DNA of 35,234 nt. It comes from Capnocytophaga canis (GTDB lineage Bacteria > Bacteroidota > Bacteroidia > Flavobacteriales > Flavobacteriaceae). The first letter of the stretch is position 1. Each line of letters opens with the position of its first letter. Where the stretch lies: the NCBI RefSeq assembly GCF_000827555.1, contig NZ_CDOI01000113.1, positions 1 to 35,234 on the forward strand, written 5' to 3'. A program made the position numbers and the translations under genes. Below are positions 3,282 through 35,234 of this stretch, one piece after another. The notes beneath the pieces were generated by a model. That model ran no database searches. It had not been told where the DNA came from and worked only from the letters and a program-made list of their open reading frames with translations.

Positions 3282-4460
3282 CTAAAAAACCTCAAAAATT
3301 CCGGCTGCTCCCTGACCTGTACCGACACACATAGAAACCATTCCATACTTCTGGTTACGGCGTTTCATTTCATCAAATAGTTGCACTGAGAGTTTTGCTC
3401 CCGTACACCCTAACGGATGTCCTAAAGCTATCGCTCCCCCATTCACATTAATAATTTCAGGATTCAAATCCAATTCTCGAATTACTGCTAAGGTTTGTGC
3501 CGCAAAGGCCTCATTCAACTCAATCATTTGAATGTCACTGAGTTGTAACCCAGATTGTTTCAAAGCCTTAGGAATAGCTTTAACAGGCCCAATCCCCATA
3601 ATACTTGGTGGTACACCTGCAACGGCATATGTTATCAATCGAGCTATAGGATTAATATTCAGTTTTTTGACTAATTCCTCACTCATCAGCAACAAAAAAG
3701 CAGCTCCATCACTTGTTTGGGAAGAGTTTCCTGCCGTAACACTACCTCCTTTTGCAAAAACAGGTTTTAGTTTTGCTAATGCCTCTAATGAGGTATCACT
3801 ACGTGGCCCTTCATCAGTTTTAAAGGTGTATGTTCGTGCGGTACGAATCCCATTTCTAAGTAGCACTTCCTCTACTTGAATAGGTGCTATCTGACCCTCA
3901 AATCGTTTTTCGGTCAGAGCTTTGACTGCCTTTTGATGCGATTGAAACGCGAACATATCTTGATCTTCTCGCGAGATATTAAACTGACAAGCTACTTTTT
4001 CGGCGGTAAGTCCCATTCCCCAATAGAAATCTTCATTCCCTTGCATAACTGATTTATAATCAGGTGAAGGACGGTATCCTCCAAAAGGGATATAACTCAT
4101 ACTTTCCACGCCTCCCGCTATGATGCAGTCTGCCATACCAGACTGAATTTTTGCCATTGCAATAGCAACACTTTCTAGTCCCGATGCACAATATCGATTA
4201 ATGGTCATCCCAGGCACTTGGTCGGTCTGCAAACCCATTAAGGAAATAATCCTTCCCACATTTAGCCCTTGCTCTGCCTCGGGAACAGCACTCCCTACAA
4301 TGACATCATCAATCATAGTTTTATCAAAATCAGTCATTTGTGAAATCATATAGGCAATAGTTTCAGCCGCTAACTCGTCCGGACGCTTGAAACGAAGCAA
4401 TCCACGAGGAGCTTTTCCAACAGCCGTACGATAGGCTTTTACAATATAGGTTGCTTTCAT
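3282..4460 (-). CDS. fadA: Acetyl-CoA C-acyltransferase (thiolase)
   Basis: Thiolases cleave 3-ketoacyl-CoA with CoA (beta-oxidation) or condense two acetyl-CoA. The 392-residue length and all catalytic signatures are intact: nucleophile Cys91 in NRYCASGLE, His348 in [16 protein letters not shown], and the general acid/base Cys378 in [10 protein letters not shown]. The N-terminal [15 protein letters not shown] and the long loop sequence resemble FadA-type degradative thiolases more than short-chain acetoacetyl-CoA thiolases, but this is a judgement by eye. No FadB partner lies in the window; an acyl-CoA ligase is 1.2 kb away on the same strand. It appears to be the first gene of the thiolase/PLP enzyme/GH73/prmC cluster. 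I see no consensus TAnnTTTG in its upstream 168 bp. Confidence 0.92.
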
Positions 4461-4628
4461 AATGTTGCTTATTTAACCATAACATTCAACAACGAAGACA
4501 AATTCTTGTGCTAACTGACCTTATTTTTCAAAAGTTTATTTTAAAAAATAGAGATACAGAACTTCTAAAATTTGGATTCTTGAAGTATATAATATCAACA
4601 AAATCAAATTCTGCGAAAAAACGATTAT

Positions 4629-5567
4629 TTAGAAATCTTTTAAGGTGCTGATAAACTTCCTCGAAATAATTTCATCTTGTTGCAACTGAGCTTTTAATGC
4701 TTCTATTGAATCAAATTTTTGTTCAGTGCGATGGTATTGTAAAAAATAGATTTGTAGGGTTTCTCCGTATATATCCTTATCAAAATCAAAGAAAAACACT
4801 TCCATAGAAGGCTCTTTGCCTGGTATAGTTGGATTCTTTCCGATACTCATCATGCCATATATCTTTTTGCCACTGATGATGCTATAAACGATGTAAATAC
4901 CATCTTTGGGAATTAGCTTGTACGGAAAATCTACCTGAATATTAGCTGTGGGGAAACCTATTTCCCTACCAAGTTTCATGCCGTGAACAACTTGTCCGGT
5001 AATCAAAAAAGGGCTTCCAAGGTAGTCCCATGCTTTCTTCACATCGCCTTGAGCTAAGGCTTCGCGTATTTTGGTAGAACTAACCGATACTTCGTTTATT
5101 TCCTTTGCTGAAATTTCTTCTACTTCAAAGCCGTATTGTACTCCAAATTGACGCATATCATCAATATCAGCTGTTCGATTTCGCCCAAAGCGATGATCGT
5201 ACCCAATCACTACTTTTTTCATATTCAGAGTTTTAATTAAAAACTCCTCCACAAATTCCCGAGCCGACATTTGTGAAAATTTTTCATCAAACGGATGGGT
5301 TATCAATTGGTCTATACCTAACGTAGACAACTTCTGACTTTTCTCTTCCAAGGTATAGATCAATTTCAAATCATTACAGTGTTGTACTACCATTCTCGGA
5401 TGTGGAAAAAAAGTAAAAATGGTTGAGTACCAATCTCTTTGGTTAGCTTCTTCCACCAACTTTCGAATAATTTTTTGATGCCCCAAATGCACCCCATCAA
5501 ATGTTCCGATGGTAATAACACTTCCCTTGGAAGCTTTGAATTTGGAAATATCGGTTATCTCTTTCAC
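4629..5567 (-). CDS. ribF: Bifunctional riboflavin kinase / FAD synthetase
   Basis: RibF phosphorylates riboflavin to FMN and adenylylates FMN to FAD in the cytosol. At 312 residues it has the normal length. The N-terminal nucleotidyltransferase domain shows GTFDGVHLGH at 21-30 and VSSTKIREAL at 162-171. The C-terminal kinase domain begins near 185 and has the FMN/ATP-binding GREIGFPTANI at 200-210. Both activities look intact. It lies 119 bp downstream of the acyl-CoA ligase gene on the same strand and could be read from that promoter, because I see no good minus-strand TAnnTTTG in the gap. No riboswitch-like leader is visible. Confidence 0.95.
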   Translation of the reverse strand: MKEITDISKFKASKGSVITIGTFDGVHLGHQKIIRKLVEEANQRDWYSTIFTFFPHPRMVVQHCNDLKLIYTLEEKSQKLSTLGIDQLITHPFDEKFSQMSAREFVEEFLIKTLNMKKVVIGYDHRFGRNRTADIDDMRQFGVQYGFEVEEISAKEINEVSVSSTKIREALAQGDVKKAWDYLGSPFLITGQVVHGMKLGREIGFPTANIQVDFPYKLIPKDGIYIVYSIISGKKIYGMMSIGKNPTIPGKEPSMEVFFFDFDKDIYGETLQIYFLQYHRTEQKFDSIEALKAQLQQDEIISRKFISTLKDF

Positions 5568-7513: not shown

Positions 7514-7989
7514 TTTTTTTTGACATTTTTTTGTCGATATTTGGATTTAACTTTTTTATTATTGATTGATTTACAGAACAATAAATCAGATGAAATATAA
7601 AAAAACAATACAATCATAACATTAGTATTTTAGCATTAGTAAAGTTTTGTAAAACGATTATTTAAATTTGATTTGTACATTAAAACAAACCAGAAACGAC
7701 AACACTTTTTGAAGATAATCTTCTTAATTTGAGCAATATAACGAAAAAATAAAATATTTCGGTAAATCATTAGTAGACTATCTTTACAAAACAAATTATG
7801 GTTACATATAAATTGTCAGTGAAATTCTTTACGAATACAATTCTGTTTTCTATAGGATTTGGCACCTTTTTTACTATATTTGTGCTTTAAGAATCTGTGG
7901 AGCGTGACTCTACCGTTATTTATATTTCACAAAATCACAACCTTATTATTTAATTATCAACGATTTATACAACAATACCTAAATATTTT
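7514..7989. other. AT-rich intergenic region between divergent genes
   Basis: No conserved gene is visible. A 30-codon open frame (7798-7890, +) encodes a short lysine-led hydrophobic peptide. A one-mismatch -7 element, TATCTTTA, lies 19 bp before its ATG at 7779-7786. Such a peptide can arise by chance in AT-rich DNA. A perfect TATATTTG sits at 7875-7882, before the 205-residue secreted-protein gene. A small hairpin (GTGGAG, CTCTAC) lies near 7898-7914 in what would be that gene's leader. Confidence 0.4.
7875..7882 (+). promoter_or_regulatory. -7 element before the 205-residue secreted protein gene
   Basis: TATATTTG fits TAnnTTTG. No TTG is at the ideal distance (the nearest leaves 13 bp), so support is partial. 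The leader would be about 100 bases. Confidence 0.35.
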
Positions 7990-8607
7990 ATGAAGAGATT
8001 TACATTTTTACTATGCATCGCCTTTTTAAGCATTACTTTCGGACAGGAAAAAATAAAAGTAACTTCCGTCTATGGCAGTGAAAACAAAGAGGTACAAGTT
8101 TTATTAGATTTTGAAAATATCTACATCCAAACCCTTACCTTTCACGGGGCTACTATCAAAGGCAAACATTATGAAGTTACAATTTCAGAGTATGAAAACG
8201 GAAACCTTGTAAGAACAGAAACACTATTTGATGGTTCGGAGTCTGATTATTTCAGAAATCAATCCAATACTTTGCCCCTTACATTCTTCTTTAAAATGGC
8301 AGACGGTAAATTTAAAGGATTTTTGCGAGGTGAACGCTTTGGTAGTAAAAAAGTATATTTTGATTTGAAAAGTGAATCGGATATGTACGTTTTAAAGGAT
8401 TTCTTTGGTTCATCAAATGAATGGTTTTTTACGTCTGACACCAATAAAGCTACTGCTATTTTTGCTATCATTACCCCGAAAATCAATCCTGATGGCTCTG
8501 GCTCATACTGTGAAGTTGCCCAGTCAGATATTGCTCCCGAACGTTTCGGTACGCACTTTCTCATTCCGCATTACTTTTTAGTGTCCATTCGATTTAAGGA
8601 AAAATAA
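7990..8607 (+). CDS. Secreted protein of unknown function
   Basis: I do not recognise a family. The 205-residue product starts with a clear Sec signal peptide (KR, hydrophobic core LLCIAFLSITFG, probable cleavage before QEK). The mature part is about 185 residues with alternating short hydrophobic and polar segments, which suggests a beta-rich fold. It has a single mature cysteine and no obvious repeats, metal ligands or transmembrane segments. The C-terminal third contains ATAIFAIITPKINPDGSGSY. A periplasmic or surface location is inferred from the signal peptide. The metallophosphatase gene 168 bp downstream has its own promoter, so the two need not be functionally linked. Codon use looks like its neighbours. 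Confidence 0.8.
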   Translation: MKRFTFLLCIAFLSITFGQEKIKVTSVYGSENKEVQVLLDFENIYIQTLTFHGATIKGKHYEVTISEYENGNLVRTETLFDGSESDYFRNQSNTLPLTFFFKMADGKFKGFLRGERFGSKKVYFDLKSESDMYVLKDFFGSSNEWFFTSDTNKATAIFAIITPKINPDGSGSYCEVAQSDIAPERFGTHFLIPHYFLVSIRFKEK

Positions 8608-12242: not shown

Positions 12243-12265
12243 TTCTATCGGCATTGGAGACAAAG
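12243..12265. repeat. Dispersed 23-bp repeat, copy 1
   Basis: This stretch matches 33594-33616 at 19 of 23 positions, and all four differences are transitions. The shared core is GGYATTRGAGACAAAG. Both copies lie in non-coding DNA. Confidence 0.55.
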
Positions 12266-12400
12266 TCCGCTCTGCGGAGTATATGAGAGTTAATTTTTAG
12301 TGAAGTATCCACAGCCTTGAAATGAAATTCGCCGACCTTGTGGAGGCAATTTTGGTTTCACATACTAAGCCTTCGCTTACTATGTTTCAACACAAAAGTA
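12260..12400 (-). ncRNA. Candidate structured RNA
   Basis: A minus-strand TACTTTTG (12400-12393, TAnnTTTG) would start a transcript near 12387. The first 30 bases fold into a hairpin: CATAGTAAGC, loop GAAG, GCTTAGTATG (10 bp, one mismatch; 12384-12361). Further on, TCCACA/TGTGGA (12344-12308) and TCCGC/GCGGA with a 3-base loop (12278-12266) can pair. The patch is GC-richer than its surroundings and has no open frame of note. There is no -33 TTG at the right distance and no clear terminator, so this is only a candidate. Confidence 0.25.
12361..12384. repeat. Hairpin, 10-bp stem with 4-base loop
   Basis: CATACTAAGC and GCTTACTATG pair with one mismatch across a CTTC loop. Confidence 0.7.
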
Positions 12401-12677
12401 CAAATATGAAAATAAATAATGAACTGAAAAAATAAATATGTATTTATTATTGAAATGGAGTCAATCCGAATTATTTAACGATGTTACTTACGGATTTAAG
12501 ATAAAAATAATTGTCTTTCAGAACAATGGAGGTCTCTTCAGCTCGAATTAAAATCCGAAAATGCTGTATTTTATAGGCGAAAGATGTTTTGCTTAACTGA
12601 ATTTATACATTGAAACAAGACTAAAAAGATTGATTCGAATTAAATCGGAAAAACATTTAAAATGAATTTACTATTCC

Positions 12678-32243: not shown

Positions 32244-33503
32244 TCACACTAAAAACTGAAATAAATCGGGTTTGTTGTTTAGGTAATCTCCATAGAAGTT
32301 GCGTTGTTTCATCCGGTCGATAAGTGGTTGAAGGTCAGCTTCATTTTTAAGTTCGATGCCTACTACGGCAGGTCCGTTTTCGCGATTGTGCTTTTTGGAG
32401 TATTCAAAATAGGTAATATCATCTGTTTTTCCGAGTATTTCAACCACAAATTCTTTCAATGCACCGGCACGTTGCGGAAATCGAACGATGAAATAATGCT
32501 TTAAATTGGCATAAAGCAAGGCACGTTCCTTAATTTCTGCCGTTCGGGTGATGTCATTATTGCTTCCGCTGATAACACAAACCACTTTTTTACCCTTAAT
32601 TTTTTCTTTATAGAAATCCAGAGCGGAAATTGATAACGCCCCTGCAGGTTCCACTACAATAGCATCGCGGTTGTACAGATCCAAGATGGTTTGACATACT
32701 TTTCCCTCGGGTACAAGCACAACATCATCTAAAAATCGGTTACAGATTTCAAAATTTAAACTGCCCACTTTCTTTACCGAAGCACCATCTACAAACTTGT
32801 CAATTTCAGTGAGTTCCACAGGTTTTCCTGCTTTCAACGCTTCTTTCATTGAGGGGGCACCTAAGGGTTCAACTCCAATGATTTTCGTTTGTGGAGAAAG
32901 CGTTTTAAATACGGAAGAAAGCCCTGCTGAAAGTCCGCCACCACCTATGGGAACAAACACATAATCAATCGGTTCGTTAGCTTGGTCGAGAATTTCTAGC
33001 CCAATAGTGGCTTGTCCTTCAATGACTTTTTCATCGTCAAAAGGAGGGACGAACGTTTTTGCGTTTTCTGTTGCAAATTTTATTGCGGCATTGTTGGAAT
33101 CATCAAAAGTATCGCCTTCCAAAACTATGGTAACGTTCTCTCCGCCAAACATTTGTACTTGTTCAATTTTTTGTTGTGGAGTAGTTACAGGCATATAAAT
33201 ATCACCTTTGATATTTAATATTTGGCAAGAAAGTGCCACACCTTGTGCGTGATTTCCGGCACTCGCACAGACGATTCCTTGTTGTTTGTCTTGCTCGGAA
33301 AGGGAGCTGATTTTGTTGTACGCTCCTCGTATTTTATAAGAACGTACTTGTTGTAAATCTTCTCTTTTAAAATAAATTTCAGCTCCGAATAAATTGCTTA
33401 ATCGCACACTTTTTGAAAGCGGTGTGGTATTTATCACAGATTTTATCCGTAGCATTGCTTTTTGTACTTCTTGAACTTGTGGTATGTATGTTGTTACTTC
33501 CAT
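32244..33503 (-). CDS. ilvA: Threonine dehydratase (threonine ammonia-lyase)
   Basis: IlvA deaminates threonine to 2-oxobutanoate, the first step of isoleucine synthesis. The 419-residue protein has PLP Lys57 in SYKIRGAYNK, the phosphate-binding GGGGLSAGLSSVFK, and SAGNHAQGVA contacting substrate. One ACT-like C-terminal domain (about 335-419, HYFIVRFPQRAGALKEFV) marks the shorter, single-ACT biosynthetic type. Feedback control by isoleucine is therefore expected, though with one rather than two effector domains. It is on the same strand as ilvC, which normally would directly precede it; here about 1.28 kb of foreign-looking DNA separates them. I see no TAnnTTTG within 100 bp upstream. Confidence 0.94.
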   Translation of the reverse strand: MEVTTYIPQVQEVQKAMLRIKSVINTTPLSKSVRLSNLFGAEIYFKREDLQQVRSYKIRGAYNKISSLSEQDKQQGIVCASAGNHAQGVALSCQILNIKGDIYMPVTTPQQKIEQVQMFGGENVTIVLEGDTFDDSNNAAIKFATENAKTFVPPFDDEKVIEGQATIGLEILDQANEPIDYVFVPIGGGGLSAGLSSVFKTLSPQTKIIGVEPLGAPSMKEALKAGKPVELTEIDKFVDGASVKKVGSLNFEICNRFLDDVVLVPEGKVCQTILDLYNRDAIVVEPAGALSISALDFYKEKIKGKKVVCVISGSNNDITRTAEIKERALLYANLKHYFIVRFPQRAGALKEFVVEILGKTDDITYFEYSKKHNRENGPAVVGIELKNEADLQPLIDRMKQRNFYGDYLNNKPDLFQFLV

Positions 33504-33593
33504 ATTTTTTTGATAAAATTGATTTTTTTTAATTTATTACTTAGATATATTGTATTTGCGTTAATATTCTGATTTATAGTTATTTTTATAAAG

Positions 33594-33616
33594 TTCCATT
33601 GGTATTAGAGACAAAG
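33594..33616. repeat. Dispersed 23-bp repeat, copy 2
   Basis: Matches 12243-12265 at 19 of 23 positions, all differences being transitions. It lies in the non-coding part of the ilvC-ilvA interval. Confidence 0.55.
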
Positions 33617-33704
33617 CGTAAAAAAGTCAGAATGGAGTGTAGAAAAAATCTATTGTTCGAAGCAACCTTAGGGAGCTAATTTGGAGATTTTTAAAGGAGA
33701 GGCT

Positions 33705-33770
33705 TTTTTATCAAGATTTTTTGGGTTTACTCCAAAAATTCTTGGCTTTGTTTGCCATCAATAGAGGTGG
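33705..33770. repeat. Direct repeat flanking the toxin-immunity module, copy A
   Basis: About 66 bp that aligns with 34669-34735 at roughly 87% identity with two 1-base indels. Read on the minus strand both copies encode IDGKQSQxFLE followed by a stop or a glutamine-threonine-stop. Confidence 0.75.
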
Positions 33771-33855
33771 CTACGTGAAATTCATTGGCTTGTATGTCGT
33801 TTATGCTTTTGTAAACCAGCTCAAAACCATATTTGTCGATAATGACAACTAAGTT
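33727..33855 (-). pseudogene. Fragment of an unrecognised coding sequence, lacking a start
   Basis: An open stretch of 42 codons between a TGA and the TAA at 33727-33729 reads NLVVIIDKYGFELVYKSIND, then IQANEFHVATSIDGKQSQEF and LE. It looks coding (mixed, non-low-complexity composition) but has no start codon and overlaps the end of the upstream small gene by 7 bp. Its last 11 residues recur in the copy at 34670-34735. I do not recognise the family. It is most simply the tail of a gene whose front has been replaced by the toxin-immunity insert. Confidence 0.55.
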
Positions 33856-34196
33856 TCAAATTGTTTATGTATATCTTCAATTATACTCCAATCGACATTT
33901 TCATATTGTTCTCCTTCTTCTATTAATTTAAATTGTCCCTGTTCAAAGTTTAAATCATCTTTTCCATATTTATTGATATAGTCGAATTTCATTTTTGAAT
34001 ACCAAAAATATTTATTGTAATAAATATTTAAAGTATTTATTTCGTTAAAAAGTTCACTATAATACTTTAACAGAATAAAATTATCTAATGACTTTTTAAT
34101 CAAATTATCTTTAATTAAATCTTTATTTATAGACCACCTGTCATAATCTATTAGACTATAATATTTTTCAAAAAGATTATCTTCTATTTTTTTCAT
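33849..34196 (-). CDS. Small acidic protein, probable immunity partner
   Basis: The 115-residue protein is not a family I recognise. It is rich in Tyr, Asn, Ile, Asp and Glu, has no signal peptide or membrane segment, and contains WSIIEDIHKQFET at its end. Three points suggest an immunity protein. Its ATG overlaps the TGA of the upstream toxin-like frame (ATGA at 34193-34196). Its size and acidity fit. Its codon use, with many AAT, ATA and TTA codons, is more AT-rich than the ilv genes on either side, which suggests transfer. Binding to the toxin-like domain is inference. The gene itself looks intact even though the toxin frame is broken. Confidence 0.6.
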   Translation of the reverse strand: MKKIEDNLFEKYYSLIDYDRWSINKDLIKDNLIKKSLDNFILLKYYSELFNEINTLNIYYNKYFWYSKMKFDYINKYGKDDLNFEQGQFKLIEEGEQYENVDWSIIEDIHKQFET

Positions 34197-34680
34197 TCTA
34201 CTAAATATTTTACTATTATATCTATTTTATTTTCATTAAAAAACCTTTGTAGATGTTCTTTTGCGATTTCATCTGAAACTAACCATTCGACTTTTAAACC
34301 ATTTTGCTGAGCTGTTGTTAATTGTGTCCTTGCTTCTTTTAAAATATTTTGTCTTAAAAACTCAGGTTTATCATAAATCCTATAAATAGAGTTTTTAGGC
34401 ACCAATACGCATTTACCATCTTGCAACATATTTTCTGATATATTTTCAAATTGGACAAAACGATTTTCAGTTGAATTCCATAAATAAAAGCTCTCATCAT
34501 TAGGGTTTATTTTTAATTCATATACCTCTACTCTTGGATTAGACTGCTTTATTCTTTTTCCAAAGTATCCTTTTTCAAAAGGATGAGTATCGATATCTAT
34601 AGCCTCACCTTATTTTTGTGGTATATTTTTTCGCCTTCACCAACTCGTCCACCTGCTTTTCAATGACATTTTTATCAAGA
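34193..34680 (-). pseudogene. Damaged polymorphic-toxin C-terminal domain
   Basis: On the minus strand an open frame of 138 codons runs from just after a TAA (34612-34610) to the TGA at 34193. It has no ATG until 34429, although clear coding sequence lies before it (GEAIDIDTHPFEKGYFGKRI, then QSNPRVEVYELKINPNDESF). Upstream, a second frame, one base off, reads KAGGRVGEGEKIYHKN and would join it if one base were restored near 34610. The end (NILKEARTQLTTAQQNGLKV, then EWLVSDEIAKEHLQRFFNEN) resembles, from memory, restriction-endonuclease-fold toxin domains (Tox-REase-5-like) at the tips of polymorphic toxins. Delivery domains are missing. The assignment is tentative; the frameshift is seen directly. 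Confidence 0.55.
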
Positions 34681-34740
34681 TATTTTTAGGTTTGCTCCAA
34701 AAACGCTTGACTTTGTTTGCCATCAATCAAAGTGGTATCT
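34605..34740 (-). pseudogene. Second fragment of the repeated coding tail
   Basis: Minus strand: TTLIDGKQSQAFLEQT, a TAA stop at 34688-34686, then in the same frame KYLDKNVIEKQVDELVKAKK and YTTKIR before a TGA. The first part matches the tail of the 33727-33855 fragment; the second part extends it further. It begins about 40 bases after the ilvC stop and shares its last part, in another frame, with the start of the toxin-like sequence. Both look like relics of one ancestral gene or pre-toxin region. Confidence 0.5.
34669..34735. repeat. Direct repeat flanking the toxin-immunity module, copy B
   Basis: Partner of 33705-33770, in the same orientation, 964 bp away start to start. Confidence 0.75.
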
Positions 34741-34782
34741 GAAGGAAAAAACAGAATACGAAAATTAAACAAATAACTCCAA

Positions 34783-35234
34783 CTATTTTATTCGCTTCAT
34801 ATCAGTCATATAACCCCTTAAATGTGCTCCAATTACTTCGATGGGGTGTGAGGCTATGGATTTGTTTACCTGAATTAAATCAATATTGTCGATTTGGTTT
34901 GAGACAGTGAAATGACGCCCGATTACATTGTTTTCTAATCCGTCGATATAGGTAGCAATGAGCGGTCGGCATTCGTGGTCAAACAGATAGCAGCCGTATT
35001 CGGCAGTGTCGGAAATGGTTTTATTCATTTCGTATAATTTTTTACGAGCTATAGTGTTGGCAATCAGAGGCAATTCGTGTAGTGATTCATAATATGCTGA
35101 TTCGGCTTTTATGCCTGATTCGGTCATTACTTCAAAAGCCAACTCCACCCCCGATTTTACCATCGCTACCAATAATGTTCCGTAGTCAAAATAGGTTTGC
35201 TCTTCAATAGCTTCGGTAGTGGTAGGGGGTTTCT
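34783..35234 (-). CDS. ilvC: Ketol-acid reductoisomerase, class II, C-terminal part (cut by window end)
   Basis: IlvC converts acetolactate or acetohydroxybutyrate to the dihydroxy acids of the valine/isoleucine pathway with NADPH and Mg2+. Only the last 150 residues or so are in the window; the frame is open to the window edge, so the ATG at 35172 is internal. The sequence follows the long (class II, E. coli-like) enzyme closely: [20 protein letters not shown] with metal-binding Glu, [40 protein letters not shown], and [20 protein letters not shown] ending TDMKRIK. The class I form lacks this second knotted domain. ilvA is downstream on the same strand. Confidence 0.95.

What the first reader, a model, noticed from the sequence alone, without database searches (positions are those of the whole stretch)
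33700..34782. Decayed toxin-immunity cassette between ilvC and ilvA
The sequence shows an open 138-codon toxin-like frame with no start, a one-base frame break just upstream, and a downstream 115-residue acidic protein whose ATG overlaps the toxin TGA by four bases. These sit between two genes of isoleucine/valine synthesis that I expect to be adjacent in flavobacteria. The small gene is AT-richer than its surroundings. Toxin tip plus coupled immunity gene is the standard layout of polymorphic toxin systems; the toxin's resemblance to Tox-REase-5-type domains is from memory. An intact immunity gene beside a broken toxin suggests an orphan cassette kept for protection or as recombination stock.
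Basis: partly seen in the sequence, partly recalled or inferred. Interest (0 to 1): 0.75.

Follow-up and report, generated by a model that had tools for sequence, protein, structure and literature searches.

The report
Stranded toxin-immunity cassette in ilv operon
A broken piece of a probable antibacterial toxin gene and its intact partner gene, probably for immunity, sit stranded between two amino-acid synthesis genes, with no delivery gene found in the genome, and both ends of the insert carry the linker that related bacteria place before their exchangeable toxin tips.

Summary
Between ilvC and ilvA, all on the minus strand, lie a start-less 138-codon open frame (34609-34196) and an intact 115-codon gene (34196-33849) whose ATG overlaps the TGA by four bases. 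The pair is flanked by two broken copies (34633-34735, 33702-33830) of a linker of about 57 codons that, in two relatives, joins a carrier of about 1,700 residues to exchangeable tips. The carriers weakly match TANFOR and sit beside a T9SS-sorted protein, as published for TANFOR polymorphic toxins (PMC7073777). In G007 a homologue of the small gene lies beside a decayed toxin tail of the same family. No carrier was found in the window's genome. The closest relative's ilvC-ilvA gap is 184 bp, against 1279 bp here. So this is an orphan toxin-immunity cassette outside its home locus, perhaps read from the ilv transcript. Protection by the immunity gene is plausible but untested. Tox-REase-5 assignment is unproven: no Pfam hit, a weak fold lead. 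New member of a known kind.

The parts
34783..35234 (-). 3' part of ilvC (ketol-acid reductoisomerase C-terminal domain), cut by the contig end
   Evidence: Pfam KARI_C 6.1e-17; the window is the whole contig C112
34633..34735 (-). linker copy 1: later part of the pre-toxin linker of carrier proteins, with one stop, out of frame with the toxin frame that follows
   Evidence: 86% over 95 bp to G002 and 88% over 101 bp to G019, 84% over 103 bp; protein-level hit with 1 stop; alignment
34193..34609 (-). toxin domain: 138-codon open frame without a start, plus TGA; holds an Asp-Gly-Lys at residues 64-66
   Evidence: C-terminal 55-56 residues 41-42% identical to a decayed tail in G007; no Pfam/NCBIfam hit, no meaningful PDB sequence hit
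33849..34196 (-). predicted immunity gene, 115 codons, intact, acidic; ATG overlaps the toxin TGA by 4 bases
   Evidence: homologues in G007 (31%, 3.1e-6) and G187 (34%, 5.7e-5)
33702..33830 (-). linker copy 2, 18 bp after the immunity stop, interrupted by stops; its end is missing
   Evidence: 92-93% over 127-130 bp to G002 linkers; 3 stops in the protein-level hit 33673-33828
33590..33693 (.). left part of a dispersed intergenic repeat, broken off next to linker copy 2
   Evidence: 5 matches in the own genome including itself; also in G005 and G019 loci
32244..33503 (-). ilvA (threonine dehydratase; name from sequence and recall), downstream neighbour
   Evidence: ORF; matches at 77-100% identity in 5 other genomes of the genus

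Best explanation
The interval holds one orphan toxin-immunity cassette of a TANFOR-like polymorphic toxin system. In relatives the unit is linker, toxin tip, small gene; in G002 it is repeated behind a large carrier, and the tips are exchanged right behind the linker. Here one such unit, with part of the next linker, lies in the ilvC-ilvA gap of a genome in which no carrier was found. The toxin part is dead: no start, its linker out of frame and interrupted by stops. The immunity gene is open, its ATG overlapping the toxin stop. Shown: the anatomy, the linker homology, the pairing of the two families in G007, the absence of the insert in the five relatives compared, no carrier detected in the assembly. 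Inferred: that the small gene is an immunity gene, that it is made from ilvC-ilvA read-through, and that it protects against neighbours delivering the matching toxin (about 0.4 for this last step; a plain decaying fossil is about as likely). The confidence below is for origin and anatomy, which the first two rivals share.
For: Linker copies on both sides at 84-93% nucleotide identity to carrier linkers. Carriers of G002 and G019 are 75-97% identical per 60-column block (first block 66%) up to residue about 1491, then 16-25% (last block 5 of 11 pairs), the break lying right behind the linker. The G019 tip is an AHH nuclease (5.4e-13). G002 repeats the linker before two orphan tips. Both carriers have an adjacent T9SS type A sorting protein (1.4e-14 and 1.4e-11) and a weak TANFOR match (1.1e-3 and 1.3e-3). 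G007: immunity homologue, then a decayed tail of the toxin family whose end overlaps a further start codon, then a remnant of a second immunity gene. G187: immunity homologue in a cluster without a toxin match. No carrier match in G000 and nothing of G002's 20-kb carrier locus except the two linkers. No intrinsic-terminator match at 33480-35000.
Against: TANFOR scores (18.6-18.9 bits) are far below the model's cut-off of 67. No intact toxin of this family was found: among the other 19 genus genomes only G007 matched below 1e-3, with a broken tail, and G014 gave two weak hits (0.0106, 0.085); 0 of 394 other genomes in a sample of the order matched at 1e-3; the G002 and G019 carrier loci gave no significant match. 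So the attacker it would protect against is unknown. Immunity homologues are only 28-34% identical. The gap in G016 is also long, with other ORFs, so an insert there need not mean much. The assembly has 214 contigs, so a carrier could be lost in gaps, and one search scored only 40 of 147 candidates. No expression data.
Confidence: 0.82

Rival explanations
1. Pure fossil: a fragment of a cassette array landed in a non-essential spacer and is decaying; the immunity frame is still open only because the event is recent.
For: Toxin and both linkers are already broken; no carrier match; the interval also takes unrelated inserts in G016 (2,135 bp, two other ORFs); linker copy 2 is still 93% identical to G002, so the arrival may be recent.
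Against: The immunity gene is the one part without a visible lesion, with an overlapping start as in intact pairs.
Confidence: 0.45
2. Silent reserve: the cassette is stock that can be recombined onto a carrier through the linker.
For: The linker is a shared homology tract repeated before each tip in G002; orphan modules are proposed as repositories in CDI/Rhs systems (PMC4927057, passages).
Against: No carrier match in the genome; both linker copies hold stops and the toxin frame is out of register; not next to a carrier.
Confidence: 0.08
3. A two-gene toxin-antitoxin (addiction) module with an internal start in the toxin frame.
For: Two overlapping small genes; an ATG at codon 61 would give a 78-residue protein.
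Against: The linker before the frame matches the polymorphic-toxin layout; no Pfam/NCBIfam hit; toxin precedes immunity as in polymorphic cassettes; homologues lie in a carrier locus.
Confidence: 0.03

Closest known systems
TANFOR-domain polymorphic toxins of Bacteroidetes (PMC7073777; abstract, sections 6 and 7 and passages read)
   Same: In relatives: large carrier with variable tip (AHH in G019), small gene downstream, and an adjacent T9SS type A sorting protein; that paper describes T9SS-secreted (SprB, CTD) neighbours.
   Different: The window has only a tip fragment and immunity gene, no carrier; the relatives' TANFOR score is below the curated cut-off. The words 'orphan', 'linker' and 'Capnocytophaga' occur 0 times in the held main text.
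Orphan toxin-immunity modules of CDI and Rhs loci (PMC4927057, passages read; PMC3482391, section 41 and passages read)
   Same: Displaced tip plus immunity gene that keep sequence homologous to the carrier and can form tandem arrays.
   Different: Those are described downstream of their carrier; this one lies in a housekeeping operon of a genome without a detected carrier.
Polyimmunity loci and rAID orphan immunity arrays (PMC3482391 passages; PMC12247911 abstract)
   Same: Immunity without the matching weapon; G187's cluster resembles this.
   Different: The window has one immunity gene, a toxin remnant beside it and no recombinase in the interval.
Tox-REase-5 / TseT-type PD-(D/E)xK nuclease toxins
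   Different: No Pfam hit at E<=10; eight other entries, none a nuclease toxin by title, rank above it.

Membership tests
TANFOR polymorphic toxin system | N-terminal TANFOR domain in the carrier | tested here: inconclusive
   G002 and G019 carriers match TIGR02542 near the N-terminus with 18.9 and 18.6 bits, cut-off 67; no carrier match in the window's genome
TANFOR polymorphic toxin system | Conserved body with exchangeable C-terminal toxin tip | tested here: met
   In G002 versus G019; AHH tip. For the relatives' carriers, not for the window
TANFOR polymorphic toxin system | T9SS-sorted (CTD) protein encoded next to the carrier | tested here: met
   Por_Secre_tail in both neighbours; relatives only
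TANFOR polymorphic toxin system | Sec signal and export | not tested
   No signal-peptide tool used
Orphan toxin-immunity module | Start-less tip followed by immunity gene, toxin first | tested here: met
Orphan toxin-immunity module | Retains sequence homologous to a carrier | tested here: met
   Two linker copies, 84-93%
Orphan toxin-immunity module | Lies downstream of its carrier locus | tested here: not met
   Lies between ilvC and ilvA; no carrier match
Tox-REase-5 | Matches the family profile | tested here: not met
   0 Pfam families at E<=10; 0 NCBIfam families at E<=1
Tox-REase-5 | PD-(D/E)xK fold and catalytic residues | tested here: inconclusive
Polyimmunity / rAID array | Tandem immunity genes, sometimes with a recombinase, not interrupted by toxin cassettes | tested here: not met
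   One immunity gene, toxin remnant present, no other ORF of 50 codons or more inside the interval
Polymorphic toxin-immunity pair | Toxin kills; immunity protein binds and neutralises it | not testable with these tools
   Needs the bench

The most novel reading that the evidence does not exclude
The linker is a mobile-cassette attachment sequence. Copy 1 covers about linker residues 22-56 and copy 2 about 2-44, which is the product expected if a circular 'full linker, toxin, immunity' unit entered a solo linker remnant by one crossover. Cassettes could thus scatter over the genome, without a recombinase, and leave weapon-free strains with immunity driven by a housekeeping operon.
Probability: 0.2. 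Interest if true: 0.6.

Novelty: new member of a known kind. Interest (0 to 1): 0.4.

Why it matters
It ties an unannotated small gene to a toxin family, shows that TANFOR-type tips in two genomes of this genus change right behind a linker of about 57 codons, and gives a case where immunity seems to have outlived the weapon and moved into a core operon. It offers two families (toxin tip and immunity) that had no Pfam or NCBIfam match here, and a sequence tag (the linker) for finding further stranded cassettes.

Tried and rejected
Family searches of toxin and immunity frames: nothing in NCBIfam (E<=1) or Pfam (E<=10). PDB sequences: one chance-level row for the toxin (0.56, phosphomannomutase), none for the immunity protein. 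Genome-contig scans with the toxin and with a carrier stretch, viral contigs with the toxin and plasmids with both: no relatives; near records may be left out there, and one search missed even the relatives that the genome search shows. G014 toxin hits: one (0.0106; 39% over 38 residues) lies in a 64-codon open frame near a contig end with no longer gene there and could be another small remnant, but is not significant; the other (0.085) lies in a 183-codon ORF among what look by eye like fatty-acid or polyketide synthesis genes, taken as chance. G354 immunity hit (2.4e-4) lies inside a 423-codon frame that looks like an integrase by eye; I set it aside as chance. VIA-align rows (50 shown): by title no PD-(D/E)xK toxin other than 7dym_A; with a model at pLDDT 49 this says nothing. 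tRNA and Rfam scans of the window: none. No structure of the immunity protein or of the pair was predicted. Papers not opened: those in the listings and 84 other than the four named in this report.

Full report
What is there. The window is the whole contig C112 of a draft genome, G000 (2.57 Mb, 214 contigs). Its right end stops inside ilvC. On the minus strand the order is ilvC (Pfam KARI_C), a start-less 138-codon open frame (34609-34196), a 115-codon gene (34196-33849) whose ATG overlaps the preceding TGA by four bases, then ilvA. The 115-residue protein has 22 acidic and 16 basic residues; its gene is 20.1% GC against 34.6% for the window. In 1,000 dinucleotide shuffles of the interval, an ATG frame this long arose in 4 and an open frame of at least 125 codons in 12.

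Is the gap unusual? I compared the close ilvA matches found in the genus (6 of 20 genomes, G000 included; 9 further genomes matched only at 37-41% identity and 5 had no match at 1e-50; these 14 were left out). Stop-to-start distances, by my reading of the start codons: window 1,279 bp; G002 184; G005 234; G019 1; G014 overlapping by 1; G016 2,135. G002's ilvA is 97% identical in DNA, so the insert is absent from the nearest relative. G016 is an exception to 'adjacent': its gap holds two other ORFs (188 and 237 codons), with no match to this cassette. The spot is therefore variable in the genus, and the toxin pair is seen only in G000 among the six.

The flanking repeats. A 53-base direct repeat (85%) surrounds the pair. 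A peptide from copy 2 hit a 1,682-codon frame in G019. The full linker, searched in 20 genus genomes, was found in 4 at E<=0.01: G000 (only the two window copies, holding 1 and 3 stops), G002 (three), G019 (one) and, weakly, G013 (34%, 1.4e-4). G019 and G002 encode carriers of 1,680 and 1,723 residues. In 60-column blocks these are 75-97% identical up to residue about 1491, apart from a first block at 66%, and drop to 16-25% right after the linker (the last short block, 5 of 11 pairs, is 45%). The G019 tip is an AHH nuclease. In G002 the linker comes again before two further tips, each followed by a small ORF, and one of these linkers stands without the rest of the carrier body. Window copy 1 (34633-34735) ends at the same linker/tip boundary; window copy 2 (33702-33830) begins 18 bases behind the immunity stop, at the same edge as that G002 orphan linker. 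This is the layout of a cassette array cut down to one unit.

Which system. The carriers weakly match the TANFOR model (1.1e-3 and 1.3e-3; bits far below the cut-off). The G002 and G007 carriers show an fn3 match, G002's below its cut-off. Next to the G002 and G019 carriers lie proteins with a T9SS type A sorting domain. Jana, Salomon and Bosis (PMC7073777; abstract, sections 6 and 7 and passages read) describe TANFOR proteins as polymorphic toxins with tips that include AHH, Tox-REase-5 and the PD-(D/E)xK DNase BaCT, downstream immunity genes, and T9SS-secreted neighbours. I file the relatives' carriers as TANFOR-like, not as proven members.

Toxin and immunity families. In G007, behind a 1,651-codon carrier-like gene and a tip-like frame overlapped by a small gene, lies an immunity homologue (31% over query residues 8-113, 3.1e-6), then a toxin tail broken across frames (41-42% over 55-56 residues, 4.1e-6), then the C-terminal remnant of another immunity copy. 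So the two families occur together in a second species, inside a carrier locus. Outside the family, in G187, an immunity homologue (34%, 5.7e-5) lies in a row of putative immunity genes without a toxin match. In 395 genomes sampled from the order (G000 included) the immunity query hit G000, G187 and G354 at 1e-3; I set the G354 hit aside as chance. The toxin query hit only G000 there. Nothing meaningful matched in Pfam, NCBIfam, PDB sequences or plasmids, nor, for the toxin, in viral contigs.

How it got there. No carrier was detected in G000 with a 533-residue probe (11 of 20 genus genomes had a match, several of them only over part of the probe; G000 was not among them). Of G002's 20-kb carrier locus only the two linker stretches matched G000 (40 of 147 candidates scored). 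Next to linker copy 2 lies the left part of a dispersed intergenic repeat (33590-33693; five matches in G000 counting itself), while G002's gap keeps what looks like the right end of such a repeat. The insertion may have used that repeat. The extents of the two linker copies (about residues 22-56 and 2-44) also fit a single crossover between a circular cassette and a linker remnant. A randomly cut array piece fits equally well.

What it does now. The toxin part cannot be made as a carrier fusion as it stands. The immunity gene is intact and co-oriented with ilvC and ilvA, with no intrinsic-terminator match in between (promoters of non-sigma-70 type are not covered by that scan), so read-through expression is possible but inferred. 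Orphan immunity is reported to protect gut bacteria (PMC12247911, abstract), and CDI authors propose that orphan modules are retained for immunity or as stock (PMC4927057, passages). Protection 0.4, fossil 0.45, stock 0.08.

Verdict.

Noticed in passing
window 33590-33693 and 12250-12420: Two stretches of a dispersed intergenic repeat, roughly 170-190 bp by eye, seen in several genomes of the genus; five matches to the first stretch in G000 including itself.
   Followed up: partly
L063 2879-5768 (G187): Row of immunity-like genes: two near-duplicate proteins of 313 and 320 residues (beta-propeller-like by eye), the immunity homologue and a 121-residue protein resembling by eye a small protein of G007 (L008 13766-14179); a polyimmunity-type cluster.
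   Followed up: partly
L039 6608-8742 (G016): The ilvC-ilvA gap of G016 holds two other ORFs (188 and 237 codons); the gap seems to accept different inserts in this genus.
   Followed up: no
L030 near 1400-1600 (G013): A distant linker-like frame (34%) follows a run of short GGAGATAGGG-type repeats; it may be another stranded cassette.
   Followed up: no
L005 1501-1626 (G014): A 64-codon open frame with a weak match to toxin residues 50-91 (0.0106), possibly another small remnant.
   Followed up: partly
L008 15087-15977 (G007): A transposase-like gene (by eye, IS1595 type, recalled) directly follows the decayed cassette remnants.
   Followed up: no
L035 3391-8214 (G002): Small proteins of the array (3391-4089, 4156-4830, 7540-8214) share a C-terminal half but differ in their N-termini, as if the putative immunity genes were mosaics too.
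   Followed up: no
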